Below are positions 4,660-15,103 of a DNA stretch of 37,052 nucleotides, in pieces. The notes below the pieces were generated by a model. The model was not told where the DNA came from. It was given only the letters and a program-made list of their open reading frames with translations, and did not search any database. This DNA comes from Elusimicrobiota bacterium (GTDB lineage Bacteria > Elusimicrobiota > Elusimicrobia > 2-02-FULL-39-32), in NCBI GenBank assembly GCA_021730935.1, contig JAKFYJ010000003.1:1-37052 (forward strand), in the 5' to 3' direction. The position numbers were made by a program, and so were the translations under genes. How positions within the stretch are numbered: the first letter of the stretch is position 1; each line of letters starts with the position of its first letter.

Positions 4660-4920
4660 ATGAAGCCCGGACAAGAAATTATTGATCAAGGCATGCAAGA
4701 CCTTGCCCAGGGCCGGGAGACTATCCCCGCGCTCTTGGTTTCGATTGGTGCTCCGAGGTTGAGGCGTCTGGGAATGTCAATCGAGCATCCCCTGCTTTCC
4801 CCCGAACATCGTCTTTATGACAAATTAAGGATGTCCAACCCCGACGCGTCTCATTCCCAATACAACGCATGGATCCGGCGTCTGGTGAGCTTCGAGCGGG
4901 CGGCTGAATGCGCGAAATAA
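4660..4920 (+). CDS. Hypothetical 86-residue partner of a nucleotidyltransferase
   Basis: I do not recognise this family. It is mostly helical, with a charged middle (IEHPLLSPEHRLYDKLR) and no signal peptide or membrane segment. Its stop overlaps the ATG of the nucleotidyltransferase-like gene by 13 bases, indicating coupling. Its promoter carries an inverted repeat, as expected if this small protein is the antitoxin and repressor of a two-gene toxin-antitoxin or abortive-infection module. That role is inferred from layout only. There is no ribosome-binding site; the transcript probably begins almost at the ATG. Confidence 0.65.
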   Translation: MKPGQEIIDQGMQDLAQGRETIPALLVSIGAPRLRRLGMSIEHPLLSPEHRLYDKLRMSNPDASHSQYNAWIRRLVSFERAAECAK

Positions 4921-5432
4921 CAAGCCAGGAAAAAATTCAGAAGTTCATGCGCTCCTTTGGGAAAAGCGCGACACAAGAAGCCCGCGTTTATTTCACAGGC
5001 GGCACAACAGCAGTTTTGATGGGTTGGCGTGAGACGACCATCGACATTGACATGCGGTTTAATCCAGAGTTGGACGAACTGTTTCGCGCCCTTCCCGCGC
5101 TCAAAGAAGAACTGCAAATCAATATTGAATTGGCCGCTCCTTCCGATTTCATCCCTGCGCTTCCTGGCTGGGAAGAGCGTTGCGAGTTCATTGGGCGCGA
5201 AGGTAAAGTCACTTTTTATCATTATGATCCATATAGCCAGGCCTTGGCAAAGATCGAACGTGGCCACACCCAGGATTTGAAGGATGTTGAATCCATGTTT
5301 CAAAATGGGCTCCTGGACCGGCAAAAACTTCTTTCATTGTATCAGGCCATTGAATCCCAATTGCATCGATATCCTGCGATTGATCCCAAGACTTTTTCTC
5401 TCGCAGTTCATCAGATCACCGACAAGAAATAA
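4908..5432 (+). CDS. DUF6036-like / MNT-fold nucleotidyltransferase
   Basis: This 174-residue protein resembles the DUF6036 nucleotidyltransferases, related to the MNT and AbiEii-type enzymes found in two-gene defence or toxin-antitoxin modules. The core is FTGGTTAVLMGWRETTIDIDM (about residues 29-49): a GG motif followed by a D-x-D metal-binding pair, as in pol-beta-fold nucleotidyltransferases. A later conserved lysine region (LAKIERGHTQDLKDVESM) is also typical. It follows the small upstream gene with a 13-base overlap and converges with intI, only one base separating their ends. It may be AMP-transferring or toxic; this is inference. Confidence 0.75.
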   Translation: MREITSQEKIQKFMRSFGKSATQEARVYFTGGTTAVLMGWRETTIDIDMRFNPELDELFRALPALKEELQINIELAAPSDFIPALPGWEERCEFIGREGKVTFYHYDPYSQALAKIERGHTQDLKDVESMFQNGLLDRQKLLSLYQAIESQLHRYPAIDPKTFSLAVHQITDKK

Positions 5433-5433
5433 C

Positions 5434-6438
5434 CTAAACCACTTCCAGCGCGACTTCTCTCCGAAATTCGTTTTCCCGTTCCATCTGATCCAATGGGCTG
5501 ACAAACCGCTCGCTGGGCTTTTTCATGACATGAAGATAAATCTTCGTGGTTTCCATGCTGTTGTGCCCCAAAATTTCCTGAATTTCCCGGATGTTGGCGC
5601 CGGATTCGAGCAGGTGAGTGGCAAAGCTGTGACGGAAAGTGTGAGAGGACATCCGTTTTGTGATGCCGGCCAAACGCGACGCTTTGCGGAATTCTCTGTT
5701 GACGGAATCTTCGTGGATATGGTGGCGCCCTGTTCTGCCGCTTCTCGGGTCCCTCGACAAAGTTTTCGACGGGAAAACGTATTGCCAGCCCCATTCCTTG
5801 CCTGCGTTGAGAAATTTTCTCTCAATTGCATAGGGCAAATAAACCTGACCCAACCCTTTGGACAGATCGTCAAGATGCACTGCCTTGACCCATTCCAGAT
5901 GGGCCTTGAGCCCGTGTTTCACTGCTTGGGGCATCAAGGTGACGCGGTCCTTTTCACCTTTGCCGCTCCGCACGGTGATCTGCGACCTTTCAATATCCAA
6001 ATCATGGATTCGAAGCTGAAGACATTCAAACAACCGAAGGCCGGAACCGTATAATAATTGGGCGATTATTTTATAGACTCCTTGGAGAGGCGCCAAAATT
6101 TTCGCGGCTTCTGCCGAGGTCAGCACTGTGGGGACATAAAACCGTCGTTTGGCCCGCACGGAATCCGCGAAGTTTCCCAACTCTTGATTCAAAATATATT
6201 TATAAAGAAAAACGACCGCGTTGAGCGCCTGGTTTTGCGTCGAAGCAGAAACCTTTTGATCAAGAGCAAGATAAGTCAGGAATTGTTTGATGTCTGATGC
6301 TCCCATTTCCTTGGGATGTTTTTTGTTGTGAAAAAGGATGTAACGCCTGATCCAATCCACATAACTCTTTTCCGTATTGATTGAATAATGTTTCAGTCTC
6401 AACTCGTCCCTAACTTGATCCAATAGTTTTTTCTCCAT
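5434..6438 (-). CDS. intI: Integron integrase IntI
   Basis: This 334-residue tyrosine recombinase recombines attI and attC sites. Catalytic residues are visible: Arg135 (GSGLRL), Lys160 (SGKGEKDR), His266 and Arg269 (SHTFRHSFATHLL), His292 (LGH) and Tyr301 (KIYLHV). It also has the extra segment that separates IntI from XerC/D: KEWGWQYVFP followed by RSGRTGRHHIHEDSVNREF (about residues 214-250). I chose the ATG at 6438 because AAAGGACGG sits upstream and homology starts there; the frame stays open to 6588 but that extension looks non-coding. It diverges from the cassette array, the standard integron layout. I see no LexA box in its upstream region. Confidence 0.95.
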   Translation of the reverse strand: MEKKLLDQVRDELRLKHYSINTEKSYVDWIRRYILFHNKKHPKEMGASDIKQFLTYLALDQKVSASTQNQALNAVVFLYKYILNQELGNFADSVRAKRRFYVPTVLTSAEAAKILAPLQGVYKIIAQLLYGSGLRLFECLQLRIHDLDIERSQITVRSGKGEKDRVTLMPQAVKHGLKAHLEWVKAVHLDDLSKGLGQVYLPYAIERKFLNAGKEWGWQYVFPSKTLSRDPRSGRTGRHHIHEDSVNREFRKASRLAGITKRMSSHTFRHSFATHLLESGANIREIQEILGHNSMETTKIYLHVMKKPSERFVSPLDQMERENEFRREVALEVV

Positions 6439-6530
6439 AATAGCCGTCCTTTTTGCCGGATATCCACTCGCGAGGAGGGATTCAAATTTCACAGATATGA
6501 CATCATTTTTCAATTTAATCGCCGAGGGGG

Positions 6531-6548
6531 GAATTATGTCAACCTGTG
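6531..6548 (-). repeat. 18-bp inverted repeat, right copy
   Basis: The minus strand reads CACAGGTTGACATAATTC, identical to 28-45 on the plus strand. It lies about 95 bases upstream of the intI start. Confidence 0.6.
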
Positions 6549-6602
6549 TAGAAATGTCGGGTTTCCATAAACCAATAGTTATCAACAAAATATATTTATC
6601 TA

Positions 6603-6631
6603 TTGAATTTTCAAGGTTATTGGGGTATTCT
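6603..6631 (+). promoter_or_regulatory. Cassette promoter Pc (first copy)
   Basis: TTGAAT (6603-6608), a 17-base spacer and TATTCT (6626-6631) point into the array, in the place where integron Pc promoters lie. The same hexamers, spacing and part of the spacer (TCAAGGTT) recur at 11653-11681. Confidence 0.75.
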
Positions 6632-6687
6632 TGTCGTTGACAGACGAAGCACTAATCCGCAAAAATGCGGACTAATATATGTTAGGC
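6632..6687 (+). other. Primary attI recombination site
   Basis: The site ends in GTTAGGC (6681-6687), the core where the first cassette begins, and lies between intI and the first cassette. It has two copies of ACTAAT (6651-6656 and 6671-6676) around a small hairpin CCGCA-AAAA-TGCGG (6657-6670), resembling the direct repeats that bind integrase in known attI sites. The last 17 bases recur almost exactly at 11731-11744. Confidence 0.7.
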
Positions 6688-6704: not shown

Positions 6705-7040
6705 ATGAACCAGTGGAACATACCTGCGTGGCTTGAACGTGAGGTGCGGCAGCGAGACAAAAAGTGCGTATACTGCCGAATACCCATGCTTGAGTCGCCT
6801 CCTGCGGACGGATCGCGAAAATCTGTCGCGACGTGGGAGCACATCATAAACGATGCAAAAATTGTTACTCGAGAGAATATTGCGAGATGCTGTGCGTCTT
6901 GCAATTCAAGTAAAGGAACAAAGAAGCTTTCAGTCTGGATTGAGTCAAGTTACTGCAAGCGGCGCGGCATTGGCCGCGACACCGTTGCGGATGTCGTTAA
7001 ACAAGCTTTGGGCTGTATAAAGATACCCCTTGACAAATAA
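6705..7040 (+). CDS. HNH-family endonuclease (cassette 1)
   Basis: This 111-residue protein is a compact Cys4-HNH nuclease. Zinc ligands are Cys21 and Cys24 (CVYC) and the pair around CCASC (residues 62-66). The active-site His is His46 (WEHII), with Asn and Lys in NSSKGTKKL. Members cut DNA or RNA in restriction, homing or phage-defence contexts; the target here is unknown. The ATG has AGGATT just upstream and lies 24 bases after the attI core. No attC separates it from brnTA, so the three genes share one cassette. Confidence 0.8.
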   Translation: MNQWNIPAWLEREVRQRDKKCVYCRIPMLESPPADGSRKSVATWEHIINDAKIVTRENIARCCASCNSSKGTKKLSVWIESSYCKRRGIGRDTVADVVKQALGCIKIPLDK

Positions 7041-7358: not shown

Positions 7359-7564
7359 GAAAGGAATACGATTTTTCAAAATCTCAAAGAAACCCCTATC
7401 CCCCGATGCTGAAGAAGCAAATCACGATCCGCATCGAGGAAGATACTATTAATTATTTTAAAGGCCTTGCCACAAAATCCGGCATTCCTTACCAGAACCT
7501 TATTAACCTGTTTCTTCGCGATTGCGCCCACTCTCATAAAACGATTGTTCATAAGTGGGCCTAA
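7355..7564 (+). CDS. brnA: BrnA-family antitoxin (cassette 1)
   Basis: This 69-residue ribbon-helix-helix antitoxin neutralises BrnT and represses the operon. The family signature LKKQITIRIEEDTINYFKGLA and then IPYQNLINLFLRDCA is clear. The ATG overlaps the toxin stop. The stop codon TAA lies inside the first attC core (GCCTAAC), typical of genes packed tightly into integron cassettes. Confidence 0.93.
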   Translation: MRKEYDFSKSQRNPYPPMLKKQITIRIEEDTINYFKGLATKSGIPYQNLINLFLRDCAHSHKTIVHKWA

Positions 7565-7624
7565 CAATGCGATGGAGCGTATGAAAATGCAACGCATTTT
7601 CAACGCTCATCTTAGTCGTTAGGC
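7559..7624 (+). other. attC site 1
   Basis: 66 bp from GCCTAAC to GTTAGGC. Inner arms AGCGT and ACGCT and the hairpin AAAATGC/GCATTTT give the folded-site architecture. TGGGCCTAAC here is the exact reverse complement of GTTAGGCCCA at the start of cassette 1 (6681-6690). Confidence 0.9.
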
Positions 7625-7635
7625 GGGAGGTGGCT

Positions 7636-8133
7636 ATGACAAATATTTACTTATTGATAATGCAGATTGATAATTATGTCAGCAGTCTCGGGCCAATTAT
7701 CCTTTCCGTTGTAGCTTTTTTTGGAATTTATATGCTGTGGAAATCTGATGAGCAAACGGCCAAAGAAAGCTTCATGCCCCTATTAGTCGGATGGATACTT
7801 CTAATCATTTCCTTGTGTGAGATCTTGCATATTTTACCTTTCTTACCCATGTTTTATGGGTATACTTTTAATATCTTTATATTAATCGTCCTCAACACAA
7901 TACTCATGCTAGCCGGTTCAATCTCGCTTATTCGTAAGCATCATTTTGCTTTAACTTGCTTAAGCATAATTTTCCTCGGTTATTTTGGAATGATGATTTG
8001 GTATTTTATTCAAATATTTAGCAGCTCACTGCCAAATATTATGTCGATTGTAATAAACTTAGCCAAACCCGCCGCATTTGGACTTACTTGTTGTTATGTT
8101 TGGATGTTAAAAAAGAAAAATTGCCTACATTAA
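7636..8133 (+). CDS. Membrane protein of unknown function (cassette 2)
   Basis: This 165-residue, very hydrophobic protein has about five predicted membrane segments (near residues 15-36, 47-63, 74-96, 104-126 and 133-153). It has a short basic tail with KKKNC. I do not recognise a family. The frame is open from a GTG at 7630, but GGGAGG at 7625-7630 points to the ATG at 7636. Cassette 3 carries the same GGTGGCTATGA leader. It is AT-rich compared with the flanking chromosome. Confidence 0.7.
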   Translation: MTNIYLLIMQIDNYVSSLGPIILSVVAFFGIYMLWKSDEQTAKESFMPLLVGWILLIISLCEILHILPFLPMFYGYTFNIFILIVLNTILMLAGSISLIRKHHFALTCLSIIFLGYFGMMIWYFIQIFSSSLPNIMSIVINLAKPAAFGLTCCYVWMLKKKNCLH

Positions 8134-8140
8134 TCTGCTT

Positions 8141-8207
8141 GCCTAACAAAGCGATTGAGCGTATGAAAATGCTGGCGCATTTTCAACGCTCATCTTAGGC
8201 GTTAGGC
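8141..8207 (+). other. attC site 2
   Basis: 67 bp from GCCTAAC to GTTAGGC, with AGCGTATGAAAATG against CATTTTCAACGCT as the paired arms. It ends cassette 2; the match to the cassette 2 start is limited to the 7-bp core. Confidence 0.9.
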
Positions 8208-8224
8208 ATTGGGAATAGGTGGCT

Positions 8225-8647
8225 ATGAGGCGGGCGATTTTAGGGGTAACCTTAGGTGTTTTCATAAGTATTTTGTGCAGTGTGGTTTCTAGTTATATCA
8301 TTCCGAGCGGGAATCGTGTTTGGTTGATATTCCTACACTCAATGAGCGTATTTCTTGGTGGTTTAGGGGCAGAATTCTTCTCCAAGCAGGGGTGGAAAGG
8401 TGGTGCACTGGTGGGAGTTTCTTTGACATTACTCTATGCAATTGGGATCCTTGCGATTATTTTGAGTAGAATGCAGGGCGATATAATGGATATTTTCTCT
8501 TGGGAAAAAATAGGCCCGCCAATCATATCAACCATGAAGCTCATAGTGATGCCAGGAATCACTGCTATATTCCTAGGCACAATGGGAGCCGTCATTGGTA
8601 AGCGGATTCGTGGAAAACTGTCATTGAGAACAGCCGCTCAGGTGTAA
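8225..8647 (+). CDS. Four-helix membrane protein (cassette 3)
   Basis: This 140-residue protein has four hydrophobic segments (about residues 5-25, 31-53, 57-80 and 104-125) joined by short glycine-rich loops (GGLGAE, KGGALVG), and a basic C-terminus (KRIRGK). It resembles the general small multi-helix proteins of unknown function that are common in integrons; I cannot name a family. The ATG at 8225 is preceded by AGGTGG, better than the GTG at 8219. Confidence 0.7.
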   Translation: MRRAILGVTLGVFISILCSVVSSYIIPSGNRVWLIFLHSMSVFLGGLGAEFFSKQGWKGGALVGVSLTLLYAIGILAIILSRMQGDIMDIFSWEKIGPPIISTMKLIVMPGITAIFLGTMGAVIGKRIRGKLSLRTAAQV

Positions 8648-8653
8648 TCCAAT

Positions 8654-8754
8654 GCCTAACCATTCACTCCACCGTATGAAATCCGCGCAAAATGGTGGAA
8701 CTGTTGGCAGCAATTTTCACAGTGCGGATTTCAGCGGTGAGCTCAACGTTAGGG
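8654..8754 (+). other. attC site 3
   Basis: 101 bp from GCCTAAC to GTTAGGG, with ATGAAATCCGCGC paired to GTGCGGATTTCAG. CCAATGCCTAAC is the exact reverse complement of the start of cassette 3 (GTTAGGCATTGG), a 12-bp match. Confidence 0.88.
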
Positions 8755-8761
8755 CAATAAA

Positions 8762-8974
8762 ATGAACCAACGAGAATTGGAAATGCGGAAAAGTACAGAT
8801 GCAGATCTCAATATTCTGGTGCGCAAATGGTCGCCGGGAAATCCAGATCATGACGACGCAGAACGCGAGCTTTGCCGCCGCAGGGCATTATCGAAGCAAT
8901 GGACGCGCATCACTTTATATATTGCTGCTGCCTCTTTTCTTCTTGCCGCTTTTAGTTTCTGGATTAATAAATGA
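8762..8974 (+). CDS. Small single-span membrane protein (cassette 4, first gene)
   Basis: This 70-residue protein has a charged N-terminal half (NPDHDDAERELCRRR) and one hydrophobic helix at about residues 48-67 (ITLYIAAASFLLAAFSFWI). The family is not recognised. The ATG lies eight bases after the attC core with no clear ribosome-binding site, so translation may rely on a short leader. The stop lies eight bases before the next ATG, within the ribosome-binding site of the second gene. Confidence 0.6.
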   Translation: MNQRELEMRKSTDADLNILVRKWSPGNPDHDDAERELCRRRALSKQWTRITLYIAAASFLLAAFSFWINK

Positions 8975-8981
8975 GGAAGAA

Positions 8982-9170
8982 ATGAAAAAATATACCGTCG
9001 TTGTTTATATCATCTGCCTATCTTTACTGTTCTGGGTCTGCCAAAAAGCCAATACACCGTATGTGGCCATTGCAATTGTCGTCTCATTGGCGTTCAACAC
9101 TCTCCACAGAATCGAAGATTTATTGATTGAACTTTCCCAATCAAGAAAGAACGAGCATGAATTGCCCTAA
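8982..9170 (+). CDS. Small membrane protein (cassette 4, second gene)
   Basis: This 62-residue protein has two hydrophobic stretches (VVVYIICLSLLFWVC and YVAIAIVVSLAFNTL). The longer open frame from 8799 overlaps the first gene; the ATG at 8982 behind GAGGAAG (8974-8980) is the better start. The stop TAA lies in the attC core. It is probably made together with the gene before it; a small two-component membrane unit is possible. Function unknown. Confidence 0.6.
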   Translation: MKKYTVVVYIICLSLLFWVCQKANTPYVAIAIVVSLAFNTLHRIEDLLIELSQSRKNEHELP

Positions 9171-9266
9171 CAATGCGCTGCAGCGTATGAAATCCGCGCG
9201 ATTTTGAGAACTTATGAGTAAAAATTTAAGGAAGGCGGATTTCAACGCTGAGCTCAGACGTTAGCC
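9165..9266 (+). other. attC site 4
   Basis: 102 bp from CCCTAAC to GTTAGCC, with GCGTATGAAATCCGC against GCGGATTTCAACGC. ATTGCCCTAAC is the exact reverse complement of the start of cassette 4 (GTTAGGGCAAT), including the unusual GGG. Confidence 0.9.
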
Positions 9267-9289
9267 CTCAACTATGTTGGTCAAATAAA

Positions 9290-10150
9290 ATGGAGATTAA
9301 GAATAAATTTGGATTTATTTTAATTGCATGTCATTTGTTTTCATTTATGACATCAGCGGGAGAGGTATTTCCCAATAGAGATCTTGCATGTACCGCGTTA
9401 ATAGAATTCTCAAAAGGAGGAGAGGGGTCGGGCTTTTTCTTTCTTAGAAATGGTAATACATTTTTAGTAACTGCAAAACATGTTCTCGTTAATCCTGAAA
9501 CTGGGATTCTTAGGGATAAAGAAATCACTATTACTTCTGAATCTAAGGATCCGACCGAAAATAATCAAAATATTATAAAAGTTAATCTGGTCACGGCCCA
9601 GCAAAGCGGAAGACTAAAAAGTAACGACTCTCAAGATGTCACTGTAGTTTTGTTACAAAAGGATTCTTCTGGTTCTGGCAGTGAACCAGTCCTTCTGGAC
9701 GGTGTGGAAGTAATTCAAAAATCCAAAGCTGGTTTGATTGGAGTAATTGAGGATAAAACATCTTCTTTCGCAAAAGTTTCTATATCAAACGACGTATTTG
9801 TTATCGGCTATCCAAGCTCCCTTGGAATTCGTTCCACCCCACAATTTGATTATACTCGTCCATTGCTTCGCAAAGGAATTGTGGCTGGAAAGGACAATGA
9901 AGCCCGGACAATTATCATTGATTCCCCTGTTTATTTTGGGAATAGCGGTGGGCCAGTTTTTATTAAAGATCAAGTTGCCCTTGGTATAGACAATTTTTAT
10001 CTCATTGGAGTAGTAAAACAATTTATTCCGTTTGTGGAAACCTGGACAAACCAAACAACTAAATACCAAAACATCTCTGTTTCTAATTCAGGATATTCAG
10101 TTATTGCACCGACAGATGTAATTTTAGAGCTTCTTAAGAATTGGAAATAA
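9290..10150 (+). CDS. Secreted trypsin-like serine protease (cassette 5)
   Basis: This 286-residue protein has an N-terminal signal peptide (FGFILIACHLFSFMTSAG) and a chymotrypsin-fold domain. The probable catalytic triad is His64 (VTAKHVL), Asp116 (SQDVTVV) and Ser219 (YFGNSGGPVF), all in proper order. It lacks a PDZ domain, so it is not a DegP. It probably acts in the periplasm or outside the cell; the substrate is unknown. The ATG follows the attC core by about 30 bases, and no strong ribosome-binding site is visible. Codon use is AT-rich. Confidence 0.82.
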   Translation: MEIKNKFGFILIACHLFSFMTSAGEVFPNRDLACTALIEFSKGGEGSGFFFLRNGNTFLVTAKHVLVNPETGILRDKEITITSESKDPTENNQNIIKVNLVTAQQSGRLKSNDSQDVTVVLLQKDSSGSGSEPVLLDGVEVIQKSKAGLIGVIEDKTSSFAKVSISNDVFVIGYPSSLGIRSTPQFDYTRPLLRKGIVAGKDNEARTIIIDSPVYFGNSGGPVFIKDQVALGIDNFYLIGVVKQFIPFVETWTNQTTKYQNISVSNSGYSVIAPTDVILELLKNWK

Positions 10151-10162
10151 GAAAAGCAATCG

Positions 10163-10265
10163 GGCTAACAATGCGCTGCAGCGTATGAAATCCGCGCGAT
10201 TTTGGGTAACTTATGATAAAAAATTTAAGGAAAGCGGATTTCAACGCTGAGCTTAGGCGTTAGGC
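10163..10265 (+). other. attC site 5
   Basis: 103 bp from GGCTAAC to GTTAGGC, about 90% the same as attC 4, including the central AATTTAAGGAAxGCGGATTTC stretch. The GGGCTAAC end mirrors the unusual GTTAGCCC start of cassette 5. Confidence 0.9.
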
Positions 10266-10270
10266 ACATT

Positions 10271-10894
10271 ATGAAAGACTCAATGAACATTATAACTGGA
10301 TTTCTGATTTTAATATCTGCAGGACATCTGTGTGCCGCAGATCTTCGGAAAGAAATTGCAGCATGCTCTGCCTTAGACGGTGATTTAGACCGTCTCCAAT
10401 GTTTCGACAACTTATCACGGTCTTTCGAGCTAAATAAGCCAAAAATTATCCGAAAGATACATCCAAAAGCAGGAAAATGGATTCTTCAAGTTGACCAAAA
10501 TCCTATTGATGACACTAAAACTACAGTTGCGATTCTAAATGCTGATAGTGGAAAATCCAAGCAGGGCAATACTGTCTCACTAATTTTAAGATGCATGAGT
10601 AATAAACTTGAATCTTACATAACGTGGAATGATTACCTAGGATCAGATAGGACAGAAGTAACGATTAGAATTGGAACAAATACAGCCACAACAAGCTTTT
10701 GGGCTCTCTCATCGGATAACACCTCATCATTCTATCCCGGAGATGTTTCTGAATTTTTTAGCCAACTTTCATCCGCAAATAATTTTATAGCACAGGTCAC
10801 ACCATATAATGAAAATCCAACAACAGCAATTTTCGATACTACGGGAGCAGGAAAAGTAATTAGGCCCATACTTCAAACTTGTGGAAATAATTAA
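10271..10894 (+). CDS. VasI/TagO-like secreted protein (cassette 6)
   Basis: This 207-residue protein has a signal peptide (residues about 1-22) and resembles VasI/TagO, an accessory protein first described with type VI secretion loci. Family wording is visible: CSALDGDLDRLQCFDNL, GKWILQ followed by NPIDDTKTTV, LRCMSNKLESYITW, NDYLGSDRTEVTIRIG and VTPYNENPTTAIFDTTG. No other type VI gene is present, so it is probably either a free-standing member or cargo acquired through the integron. The ATG lies close behind the attC core. Confidence 0.78.
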   Translation: MKDSMNIITGFLILISAGHLCAADLRKEIAACSALDGDLDRLQCFDNLSRSFELNKPKIIRKIHPKAGKWILQVDQNPIDDTKTTVAILNADSGKSKQGNTVSLILRCMSNKLESYITWNDYLGSDRTEVTIRIGTNTATTSFWALSSDNTSSFYPGDVSEFFSQLSSANNFIAQVTPYNENPTTAIFDTTGAGKVIRPILQTCGNN

Positions 10895-10897
10895 TGT

Positions 10898-10981
10898 GCC
10901 TAACAAATCGCTGCAGCGTATGAATCCCGCGCAAAATAAGTTTAAGGAAGCGGGTTTTGCGGCTTAGCTCAAACGTTAGGC
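10898..10981 (+). other. attC site 6
   Basis: 84 bp from GCCTAAC to GTTAGGC. TAATGTGCCTAAC is the exact reverse complement of the cassette 6 start (GTTAGGCACATTA), a 13-bp match. Confidence 0.9.
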
Positions 10982-11005
10982 ATTACAATTTTGTAAAATG
11001 ACCTC

Positions 11006-11266
11006 GTGCCTGAAATAAGTCGTTTCTTCGGAATCATCATTCGAATGTTTTTCGATGATCATAATCCACCGCATTTTCATGTGGAATATAGCGGCAAGAA
11101 GGCTGTTTTTGATCTGCGCGGGAACATCCTTCAAGGGGATTTGAGATCGAAAGTAGCAGTGAGATTGGTGAGAGATTGGATCGATTTACATTCTTCTGAG
11201 TTGGAGTCTGATTGGAAACTGGCACAACAAGGTAAACCGCTTAAGAAAATCAAACCCCTTGAGTAA
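11006..11266 (+). CDS. DUF4160 protein (cassette 7)
   Basis: This 86-residue protein fits DUF4160: MPEISRFFGIIIRMFFDDHNPPHFHVEY, then the charged middle strand and a W-x-x-H-x-x-EL helix. DUF4160 proteins are usually encoded next to DUF2442 proteins, as here, and the pair is often treated as a putative toxin-antitoxin module. The start is a GTG. There is only an 11-base gap to the next gene, with AAAGGAG as its ribosome-binding site. Confidence 0.85.
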   Translation: MPEISRFFGIIIRMFFDDHNPPHFHVEYSGKKAVFDLRGNILQGDLRSKVAVRLVRDWIDLHSSELESDWKLAQQGKPLKKIKPLE

Positions 11267-11277
11267 AGGAGTTCACG

Positions 11278-11568
11278 ATGTGGAACTTAAATGACATTAT
11301 AAAAATAAAATATCTAAGACCGTATATCTATTTTGTTGAATTTGATGATGGAGTCAAAGGAGAAATAGACTTAAGCTTTCTTTTAGCCAAGGGGCCAGTT
11401 TTTAAGCCTCTCAAAAATATCAAACTTTTCCGTTCGGCTCATATTGAAGGCGGGACCATCAGCTGGCCGAATGGCGCGGATGTAGCACCTGAATCATTAT
11501 ATGAGGCCATCCAAGGTCGTACAACAAGCGATTCAAGCAAGTATATCTCGAGGCGTCGAGCTGCTTAG
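11278..11568 (+). CDS. DUF2442 protein (cassette 7)
   Basis: This 96-residue DUF2442 protein has YIYFVEFDDGVKGEIDLSFLL and the characteristic GTISWPNGADVAPESLYE segment. It is the partner of the DUF4160 gene just before it. No attC is found behind it, although every cassette before it has one; the next 170 bases hold a hairpin and a second promoter-attI module. Function is unknown beyond the putative toxin-antitoxin link. Confidence 0.85.
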   Translation: MWNLNDIIKIKYLRPYIYFVEFDDGVKGEIDLSFLLAKGPVFKPLKNIKLFRSAHIEGGTISWPNGADVAPESLYEAIQGRTTSDSSKYISRRRAA

Positions 11569-11598
11569 CTCATTATAACCCACCCTAGTTTTTCCGAA

Positions 11599-11626
11599 AA
11601 ACCTCGGATTTTTCAAAACGAGGTTT
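11599..11626. terminator. Inverted repeat, possible terminator
   Basis: AAACCTCG (11599-11606) pairs with CGAGGTTT (11619-11626) around a 12-base loop. It lies 30 bases after the DUF2442 stop and ahead of the second cassette promoter. No strong U-run follows, so a terminator role is only possible. Confidence 0.35.
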
Positions 11627-11652
11627 ATTCCAAAACCAATTAATATTTGTGA

Positions 11653-11681
11653 TTGAATAATCAAGGTTTATCGCCTATACT
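11653..11681 (+). promoter_or_regulatory. Second cassette promoter (Pc copy)
   Basis: TTGAAT (11653-11658), 17 bases and TATACT (11676-11681) match the Pc layout at 6603-6631, including TCAAGGTT in the spacer. It would restart transcription for the downstream half of the array. Confidence 0.75.
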
Positions 11682-11748
11682 TACCTTAATCCAGGCCAAA
11701 TTTTCGACCTGGATATTCCGGTGTTTATCGGACTAATCTATGTTGGTC
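11682..11748 (+). other. Second attI-like site inside the array
   Basis: The end CGGACTAATCTATGTTGG matches the primary attI end CGGACTAATATATGTTAG with two differences. As there, a small inverted repeat (CCAGG/CCTGG, 11691-11712) lies upstream. The cassette that follows starts with GTTGGTCCGTGC and ends with its exact reverse complement, so a true recombination crossover took place at 11742. No integrase gene is adjacent. Confidence 0.65.
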
Positions 11749-11796
11749 CGTGCAATTGCTTAGACTTGCGTGGGTGTCAAGCGTAGAGGGGGCTTA

Positions 11797-12120
11797 ATGT
11801 TTGATTGGAAGTTATATCTTCATGGTTTCGCTTGGATGTTTTTCATGGTTTCACCTATTCTTGAACTAATAATTTTAAGTGCAATGTATAGCTCCAATAC
11901 TCCTAGGTGTCAACGCCCAATTTTTAATGCTATGGGTGTGAGTATTCCAATAATTATTTTAATCATGTGTTTATGTGACATTTTTACTCCAAGTACCCCG
12001 AGCGCAAATATACGCTTGGATCTTGGTCTTATGCTTCCCTTAGCTATAGTAAATAGTATCTTTCTCATTGTGGCGTTTTGGATTATTTCTAAAGACAAAG
12101 TACAAGATAAGATGGAGTGA
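11797..12120 (+). CDS. Membrane protein of unknown function (cassette 8)
   Basis: This 107-residue protein has three hydrophobic segments (about residues 8-32, 42-62 and 78-98) and a short charged tail. The open frame begins at a GTG at 11770, but AGAGGGGG just before 11797 supports the ATG there. No family is recognised. It is the first gene behind the second promoter-attI module and is AT-rich like other cassette genes. Confidence 0.65.
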   Translation: MFDWKLYLHGFAWMFFMVSPILELIILSAMYSSNTPRCQRPIFNAMGVSIPIIILIMCLCDIFTPSTPSANIRLDLGLMLPLAIVNSIFLIVAFWIISKDKVQDKME

Positions 12121-12154
12121 TAAACTTTATTTTTGAGCTTTTGCTTGCAGCACG

Positions 12155-12238
12155 GACCAACAATTCGCTGGAGCGTATGAAACCCGCGCAAAATAAGTTT
12201 AAGGAAGCGGGTTTCAACGCTCAGCTCTGACGTTAGGC
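12155..12238 (+). other. attC site 8
   Basis: 84 bp from GACCAAC to GTTAGGC, about the same inside as attC 6 (GCGTATGAAACCCGCGC, AAATAAGTTTAAGGAAGCGG). GCACGGACCAAC exactly mirrors the unusual cassette 8 start GTTGGTCCGTGC. Confidence 0.9.
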
Positions 12239-12817: not shown

Positions 12818-12895
12818 GCCTAACAATGCGCTGGAGCGTATGCTCGGGGTCCCCAAAGAGTGGTCCCCTCGTAACGCTGAGCTTAGGCGTCGGAT
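12818..12895 (+). other. attC site 9
   Basis: 78 bp from GCCTAAC to GTCGGAT; the last core is unusual (GTC rather than GTT). Its hairpin arms (GCTCGGGGTCCCC against GTGGTCCCCTCG) differ from the other sites. Confidence 0.8.
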
Positions 12896-13821: not shown

Positions 13822-13865
13822 GCCTAACAATGCGCGGTAGCGTATGCTGAACTTAGGCGTTAGAT
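13822..13865 (+). other. attC site 11 (very short)
   Basis: Only 44 bp from GCCTAAC to GTTAGAT. It keeps CAATGCG and GCGTATGCTGAACTTAGGCGT, the outer parts of neighbouring sites, but lacks the whole central hairpin. GACGCCTAAC mirrors the cassette 11 start GTTAGGCATC with one mismatch. Confidence 0.8.
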
Positions 13866-14684: not shown

Positions 14685-14764
14685 GTCCTACAATGCGATC
14701 GAGCGTATGAAATCCAAGTTAAACTGGAATTCCGATTTATTTCATGCTGAAGCATGGCGATAAA
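14685..14764 (+). other. attC site 13 (degenerate)
   Basis: The body is plainly attC (CAATGCGATCGAGCGTATGAAATCC... TTTCATGCTGAAGC), but both ends are decayed: GTCCTAC on the left and GCGATAAA on the right. A further core-like GTCTAAC is at 14775-14781. Confidence 0.6.
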
Positions 14765-15025: not shown

Positions 15026-15103
15026 GCCTGACCATACACTCTGTCGCATCAAATCCGCGATTAAAGAGTGCGCAAATTTCAACCCTGAGTTCAGTCGTTA
15101 ATC
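15026..15103 (+). other. attC site 14 (last in the array)
   Basis: 78 bp from GCCTGAC to GTTAATC, with CATCAAATCCGCG and AATTTCAACCCTGAG arms. Both cores deviate from the array consensus, as is usual at the old end of an array. Confidence 0.75.

What the first reader, a model, noticed from the sequence alone, without database searches (positions are those of the whole stretch)
11575..11760. A second promoter-attI module without an integrase in the middle of the cassette array
11653-11748 repeats the layout of the real attI region at 6603-6687: TTGAAT, 17 bases, a -10 box, TCAAGGTT in the spacer, an internal hairpin, then CGGACTAAT(A/C)TATGTT at the crossover. The next cassette starts with GTTGGTCCGTGC and ends with its exact reverse complement, so recombination really used this site. 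Known integrons usually have one attI beside intI. This one may have arisen by joining of two integrons with loss of the second intI, and it would both restart transcription and offer a second entry point for cassettes.
Basis: partly seen in the sequence, partly recalled or inferred. Interest (0 to 1): 0.9.

Follow-up and report, generated by a model that had tools for sequence, protein, structure and literature searches.

The report
Dispersed integron entry sites lacking integrase
The cassette array holds a second complete promoter-plus-attachment site, and the same kind of site recurs without an integrase gene at other chromosomal places in this bacterium and its sister species, so one integrase probably feeds genes into several landing sites instead of the usual one.

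Summary
Window 11653-11742 is a real attI-type site: -35 TTGAAT, 17 nt, -10 TATACT, two leader hairpins, L box, crossover G11742. It follows a toxin-antitoxin-like pair (DUF4160/DUF2442) that has no attC. Its first cassette has a 12-nt R'/R'' match. A model built only from attI1-type sites recovers it above all noise in 1.07 Mb.

It is not a local oddity. The host genome has one integron integrase but four such sites (C25 attI1 and attI2, C27, C54); sister species G001 has one intI and three sites. All seven have TTGWAW-17-TATWCT exactly 50 or 60-61 nt from the crossover, and six start arrays with matching first cassettes. The six loci differ between the two species, and the orthologous places examined in relatives lack the insert. 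attI2 is closest to G001's intI-linked attI, not to attI1.

Best reading: attI2 ends an attI-terminated, TA-carrying cassette unit, one of a dispersed family of attI-Pc platforms served by one IntI, partly in trans. Closest known: delta-attI-type cassettes of mobile integrons, and CALINs. No report of dispersed intI-less attI platforms turned up in the open literature searched. Recombination in trans and transcription are inferred.

The parts
5434..6438 (-). intI, integron integrase (334 aa)
   Evidence: TIGR02249 418.6 bits, cut-off 265; the only clear integron integrase in the genome
6438..6687 (+). intI upstream region plus attI1; 251-bp module duplicated without intI at G000:C27
   Evidence: 91.6% identity to L038 5779-6028
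6603..6681 (+). attI1 (type A): -35 TTGAAT 6603, -10 TATTCT 6626, hairpin 6657-6670, crossover G6681
7559..10981 (+). array 1 attC sites: 7559-7624, 8141-8207, 8654-8754, 9165-9266, 10163-10265, 10898-10981
10976..11742 (+). attI-terminated, cassette-like unit: from attC crossover (G10975) to attI2 crossover (G11742), no attC inside
11006..11266 (+). DUF4160 ORF (toxin-antitoxin-like pair, first gene)
   Evidence: Pfam PF13711 E 1e-19
11278..11568 (+). DUF2442 ORF (second gene of the pair)
   Evidence: Pfam PF10387 E 3.8e-14
11593..11613 (+). terminator-like hairpin and T run between the pair and the promoter
   Evidence: counterpart hairpins in G001:C38 and C103; not unusually stable
11653..11681 (+). 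Pc promoter of attI2: TTGAAT-17-TATACT
11689..11714 (+). leader hairpin 1 (ATCCAGG/CCTGGAT), at the expected 5' end of the transcript
11717..11732 (+). leader hairpin 2 next to the L box
11729..11749 (+). attI2 core: L box CGGACTAAT, crossover G11742, R box GTTGGTCC
11743..12232 (+). first cassette behind attI2 (ORF 11770-12120); attC 12153-12238, R'' match GCACGGACCAAC 12150-12161
12818..12895 (+). second attC of array 2; weaker ones at 13822-13865, 14685-14760 and 15026-15103

Best explanation
attI2 is a complete second attI-Pc landing site. It forms the 3' end of an attI-terminated, cassette-like unit (10976-11742) that carries a toxin-antitoxin-like pair, and it belongs to a family of dispersed attI-Pc platforms. 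Each platform has a promoter at fixed distance from an IntI crossover and a hairpinned leader; several also have an upstream terminator-like hairpin and a TA-like pair. The single IntI of the genome probably inserts cassettes at all of them, in cis at attI1 and attI2 and in trans at C27 and C54, so each platform drives the first genes of its own array. Shown: homology of the sites, copies without intI at other loci, insertion into loci that are intact in relatives, and matching first cassettes at six of seven sites. Inferred: promoter activity, recombination in trans, and movement of the unit by IntI through attC x attI recombination.
For: Cross-recovery by an HMM built from the other site type. 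Seven sites in two genomes and only noise in 29 other class relatives. attCs in the host genome lie on C25 and C27, with a truncated one on C54 at E 0.92. -10-to-crossover distance exactly 50 nt (three sites) or 60-61 nt (four sites). First cassettes show 8-12 nt R'/R'' matches at six of seven sites, against about 2% or less of background GTT starts. attCs on different platforms of one genome are close relatives: C54 and C25 90% over 61 bp, G001 C38 and C112 94% over 64 bp. Loci without the insert in relatives: RlmB-DsbA, MtnP-Cdd, GT1-GT2, LhgO-response regulator, MltG-O-antigen ligase, typA-XaaPro. In G001, intI-TA-attI likewise lies between an attC-type crossover (L040 13248) and its attI crossover (10967). 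IntI1 excises and inserts cassettes of the architecture attC-ORF-deltaattI2-238 experimentally (PMC12901181).
Against: No expression or recombination data. Both genomes are fragmented and incomplete (95% and 79%), so a second intI in a gap cannot be excluded. The left edges of C27, C54 and C112 could not be pinned to a G^TT junction; C27 has AAATT on both sides, which would fit another insertion route. The attC of C112 lacks R'' and that of C54 is truncated, so some platforms may be decaying.
Confidence: 0.62

Rival explanations
1. attI2 is the original intI-linked attI of this integron, and attI1 with six cassettes was inserted later between the intI promoter region and the TA-attI2 block. 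This is a different history with the same present-day function.
For: In G001 the only attI near intI is of type B and lies beyond a TA pair, orthologous in kind to attI2. The intI upstream region is similar in both genomes (1 of 1000 shuffles reaches the score), but no attI1-type site follows it in G001. attI1-type modules also occur elsewhere (C27, C112).
Against: Only two genomes; their intI loci lie at different chromosomal places and the TA pairs are not homologous, so strict orthology of position is not shown.
Confidence: 0.4
2. Two integrons became adjacent and the second intI was lost.
For: Two attI sites of different type, each followed by cassettes, in one locus.
Against: No intI remnant was noticed between 10981 and 11650, which holds the DUF4160/DUF2442 pair; intI-less sites are the rule in this genus rather than a single accident.
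Confidence: 0.2
3. The orphan sites are relics: former integrons whose intI was deleted, with cassettes acquired before the loss and no activity now.
For: C27 begins exactly where intI would start; damaged or truncated attCs at C112 and C54; a partial 41-bp attI copy in G027.
Against: Promoter, spacing, L box and crossover are intact at all seven sites although copies are only about 70-81% alike, and stem changes on both sides keep the leader hairpins paired. Attached attCs match those of the intI-linked array of the same genome.
Confidence: 0.25
4. Chance resemblance, an ordinary cassette with an internal promoter, or a degenerate attC.
For: The pairwise match outside 16 bp is weak, and one promoter-like match is expected by chance in this stretch.
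Against: no attC-like score in 10985-11800 and no RYYYAAC partner box.
Confidence: 0.03

Closest known systems
Delta-attI-type (attI-terminated) gene cassettes of class 1 and 2 mobile integrons (PMC12901181)
   Same: ORF preceded by attC or attI and ended by attI sequence instead of attC; attC(aadA1)-aadB-deltaattI2-238 keeps 244 nt of attI2 and is mobile; one natural case has a complete attI1 downstream.
   Different: There the attI piece is usually 14-18 nt of a mobile integron's own attI. Here it is a full, diverged attI with a promoter, ends a TA-like gene pair, lies in a chromosomal integron of an uncultured class, and the same module is dispersed over the chromosome.
[quoted passage not shown] Xanthomonas (PMC12444791)
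   Same: Cassettes at chromosomal loci away from intI, which IntI could move in trans.
   Different: These clusters begin with an attI-Pc site. IntegronFinder 2.0 does not detect attI outside class 1 (PMC9024848), so such sites would be missed by routine annotation.
attG sites (Loot et al. 2024, cited in PMC11023631 and PMC12444791)
   Same: Genomic places outside the integron where IntI inserts cassettes.
   Different: attG sites are neither attI nor attC, consensus sequences in host DNA. The sites here are inserted modules of about 100 bp or more with promoter and hairpins.
Complex class 1 integrons with two attI sites, e.g. in SGI1 (PMC7056807)
   Same: Two attI sites in one element, each with cassettes.
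   Different: Those belong to a complex class 1 integron; here the two sites are diverged, of two types, and share one intI.

Membership tests
Integron (chromosomal) | intI of the integron integrase family | tested here: met
   TIGR02249 418.6 bits, cut-off 265
Integron (chromosomal) | array of attC sites with paired R''/R' | tested here: met
Integron (chromosomal) | one attI, beside intI (usual, stated in PMC3607928 and PMC9024848; not strictly defining) | tested here: not met
   two in the window, four in the genome
attI site (claim for attI2) | homology to an intI-linked attI of the same system | tested here: met
   77% to the attI nearest intI in G001
attI site (claim for attI2) | a cassette with matching R'/R'' directly at the crossover | tested here: met
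   12-nt exact match
attI site (claim for attI2) | bound and recombined by IntI | not testable with these tools
   needs an assay
attI-terminated (delta-attI-type) cassette | ORF between an attC crossover and an attI crossover, no attC of its own | tested here: met
attI-terminated (delta-attI-type) cassette | attI piece derived from the attI of an integron | tested here: met
   homologous to attI1, closer to C54 and to G001's attI
attI-terminated (delta-attI-type) cassette | excised and inserted by IntI | not testable with these tools
   shown for IntI1 in PMC12901181, not here
[quoted passage not shown]
   no intI nearby, but only one attC each was detected

The most novel reading that the evidence does not exclude
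A distributed integron: landing sites with promoters, and even the integrase gene, move around the chromosome as attI-terminated cassettes through IntI itself, so one integrase fills several separately expressed arrays in trans, with toxin-antitoxin pairs travelling on the platforms.
Probability: 0.35. Interest if true: 0.86.

Novelty: new variant of a known kind. Interest (0 to 1): 0.72.

Why it matters
Integrons are described as having one attI, next to intI, so that mainly the first cassettes of one array are expressed (PMC9024848, PMC3607928). Several attI-Pc platforms served by one integrase would give several 'first positions', letting a cell express several arrays at once and keep cassettes at many loci. 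It would also offer a way for the platform itself, normally called immobile, to spread: as an attI-terminated cassette. Because standard tools do not detect attI outside class 1, other integrase-less clusters may hide the same feature, which makes the idea testable by a genome-wide survey.

Tried and rejected
Pairwise alignment alone is too weak to prove homology beyond the crossover block, so I used cross-recovery by an independent model. attI2 as a degenerate attC: rejected. An 18-base pattern in viral contigs: 12 hits, about what chance gives by my estimate, none with the rest of the site. The genome-contig scan with an integrase alignment returned no close relatives. The same sites in 29 other genomes of the class: only noise. 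Orphan copies of their own attI in G013 and G020: none; in G027 a 41-bp partial copy. Transposon-like terminal inverted repeats at the C27 insertion: none seen by eye. The terminator-like hairpin upstream of attI2 is conserved in kind but not unusually stable, so only suggestive. One search sent with a mistyped genetic-code suffix was rejected by the tool.

Full report
WHAT WAS CLAIMED.

CHECK OF THE OBSERVATION. The integron is real. intI at 5434-6438 (minus) matches NCBIfam TIGR02249 at 418.6 bits, cut-off 265. attI1 and attI2 both carry -35 TTGAAT, a 17-nt spacer and a -10 (TATTCT at 6626, TATACT at 11676), with crossover G at 6681 and 11742. A profile built only from attI1-type sites (attI1, C27, G001:C112) was run over 1.07 Mb of loci. 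After its own members it ranked all four attI2-type sites (attI2 with E 0.0013), while the best noise was 0.4. The similarity therefore extends from promoter to crossover. The reverse test (attI2-type model) recovers C112 at 3.6e-7 but attI1 and C27 only at noise level (0.45 and 0.58), so C112 is the bridge between the two types. The motif TTGWAW-N17-TATWCT occurs 8 times in 262 kb of the relevant loci, 7 of them at these sites, and once in 1.77 Mb of other loci. The cassette behind attI2 begins GTTGGTCCGTGC and its attC opens with the exact reverse complement at 12150-12161.

WHAT PRECEDES IT. Between the attC ending at 10981 and attI2 there is no attC (best score 3.1 bits; no RYYYAAC box). 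There are two co-oriented ORFs, DUF4160 and DUF2442, which I call toxin-antitoxin-like from general knowledge of such small pairs. The segment T10976-G11742 thus starts at an attC crossover and ends at an attI crossover.

THE SITE HAS RELATIVES. A DNA search with 11600-11745 found G000:C54:14059-14167 (81%, E 3.9e-23), G001:C38:16805-16946 (76%) and G001:C103:10965-11057 (77%). A pattern search found an almost identical attI1 copy at G000:C27:5952-6017, part of a 251-bp, 91.6% duplicate of window 6438-6687 that starts at the intI start codon and has no intI. A model of six sites added G001:C112:4067-4154 (E 2.5e-11) and nothing above noise in 29 other genomes of the class. G000 is the window's own genome; G001 is a sister species of the same genus. 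Each has one clear intI.

TWO TYPES. Type A (attI1, C27, C112) has one leader hairpin and exactly 50 nt from -10 to crossover. Type B (attI2, C54, C103, C38) has two hairpins and 60-61 nt. The difference is about one helical turn, so the face of the helix would be kept (inference). In type B, hairpin 1 begins about where transcription should start, and its stem changes on both sides among copies (ATCCAGG/CCTGGAT, ATCCAAG/CTTGGAT, TCCGGG/CCCGGA), which suggests selection on the folded strand. I read these pairs by eye; one copy needs a 1-nt register shift.

ORPHAN PLATFORMS START ARRAYS. At six of the seven sites the first cassette has an 8-12 nt exact R'/R'' match, so cassettes were inserted there. 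In G000, attCs were found on C25 and C27, with a truncated one on C54 at E 0.92; in G001 they lie on C103 and C38, with a damaged one on C112. attCs of different platforms in one genome are close relatives of each other, as expected if one integrase draws on one pool.

INSERTIONS. In relatives the neighbouring genes are adjacent or close: RlmB-DsbA (G001:C38 against G000:C18, G002:C86), MtnP-Cdd (C54 against G001:C124, G002:C86), the divergent glycosyltransferases (C27 against G002:C16, G003:C430, G005:C150), LhgO and response regulator (C112 against G000:C23). The intI-bearing loci also differ: in G001:C12 typA and the Xaa-Pro peptidase gene are 3.1 kb apart, and the similarity there covers only typA and the genes right of the integron. 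G001's integron sits between MltG-like and O-antigen-ligase-like genes, which are close together in G000:C1 and G002:C63. So six loci, three per genome, none shared. The right edge of C38 is an attC crossover GCG^TTATGAATTCC at the rlmB stop codon.

THE G001 COMPARISON. In G001 the attI nearest intI lies 1.1 kb away, beyond an MNT/HEPN pair, and is of type B. Beyond the far end of its intI are two attC 3' ends (crossovers at L040 13529 and 13248) and an antitoxin cassette 59% identical to a window cassette; the full attC score there is low (11.2 bits) because only the 3' half remains. So intI-TA-attI in G001 is bounded the same way as TA-attI2 in the window. The DUF6036 protein next to the window's intI is 86% identical to the one next to the orphan attI of G001:C38, although the loci differ: TA-like pairs seem to travel with platforms.

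MECHANISM. Most likely IntI recombines attC cassettes into all these attI sites, and Pc expresses the first genes of each array. An attC-ORF-attI segment can itself be excised and inserted, as shown for class 1 and 2 constructs (PMC12901181: attC-aadB-deltaattI2-238 excised at 20/80%; attI1-aadB-attI1 at about 100%). Such a unit landing at a chromosomal site would plant a new attI-Pc platform. Shown here: anatomy, dispersal, array start points, shared attC type. Inferred: action in trans, promoter activity, IntI-driven spread. The left edges of C27, C54 and C112 could not be tied to a G^TT junction, and AAATT lies on both sides of C27, so another insertion route remains open.

WHICH SITE IS OLDER. 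attI2 matches G001's attI better than attI1 does, and G001 keeps an intI upstream region similar to the window's without an attI1-type site behind it. This favours attI2 as the older intI-linked site and attI1 plus six cassettes as the later insert, but two genomes are too few to decide.

COMPARISON WITH THE KNOWN. One attI per integron is the stated norm (PMC3607928, PMC9024848). In-array attI remnants are known in mobile integrons (PMC12901181), and two attI sites in an SGI1 complex integron (PMC7056807). CALINs and attG insertions are known (PMC12444791, PMC11023631). Searches for orphan, multiple or secondary attI in the open library gave no report of dispersed intI-less attI platforms; this covers open-access text only. 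I rate it a new variant of a known kind.

LIMITS. Both genomes are fragmented and incomplete; the taxon is not named by the tools; nothing here measures activity.

Noticed in passing
window 6438-6687 against L038 5779-6028: The C27 duplicate starts at the position of the intI start codon and sits upstream of a divergent glycosyltransferase gene, so the old intI promoter may now drive that gene.
   Followed up: partly
L040 13248-13536: Cassette remnants (attC 3' ends and a BrnA-like antitoxin gene) lie on the far side of intI in G001, so the integrase gene itself sits inside an array.
   Followed up: partly
window 4660-5432 and L134 11979-12769: A gene pair with a DUF6036 protein (86% identical) accompanies intI in one species and an orphan attI in the other, at unrelated loci.
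   Followed up: partly
L155 2748-3336: A RelE/HigA-like pair (TIGR02684 antidote) follows the last attC of the C112 platform, mirroring the pair that follows the last attC of array 1 in the window.
   Followed up: no
L201 766-806 (G027:C512): A relative from another family has a 41-bp, 93% partial copy of its own attI on another contig, with TTGAAA-17-CAAACT, but a GTG crossover and no attC seen: a possible orphan relic.
   Followed up: partly
L011, L013-L023: Many integron-integrase-like genes of the class have no attC detected nearby by the model used, and several share a similar coding-like upstream block; they may be a different recombinase group.
   Followed up: no
window 9290-10150: A 286-aa cassette product looks like a trypsin-type serine protease by eye; no NCBIfam hit.
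   Followed up: no
window 6705-7040 and L040 6666-6717: Short stretches of cassette genes are shared with the array of the sister species although the arrays lie at different loci.
   Followed up: no
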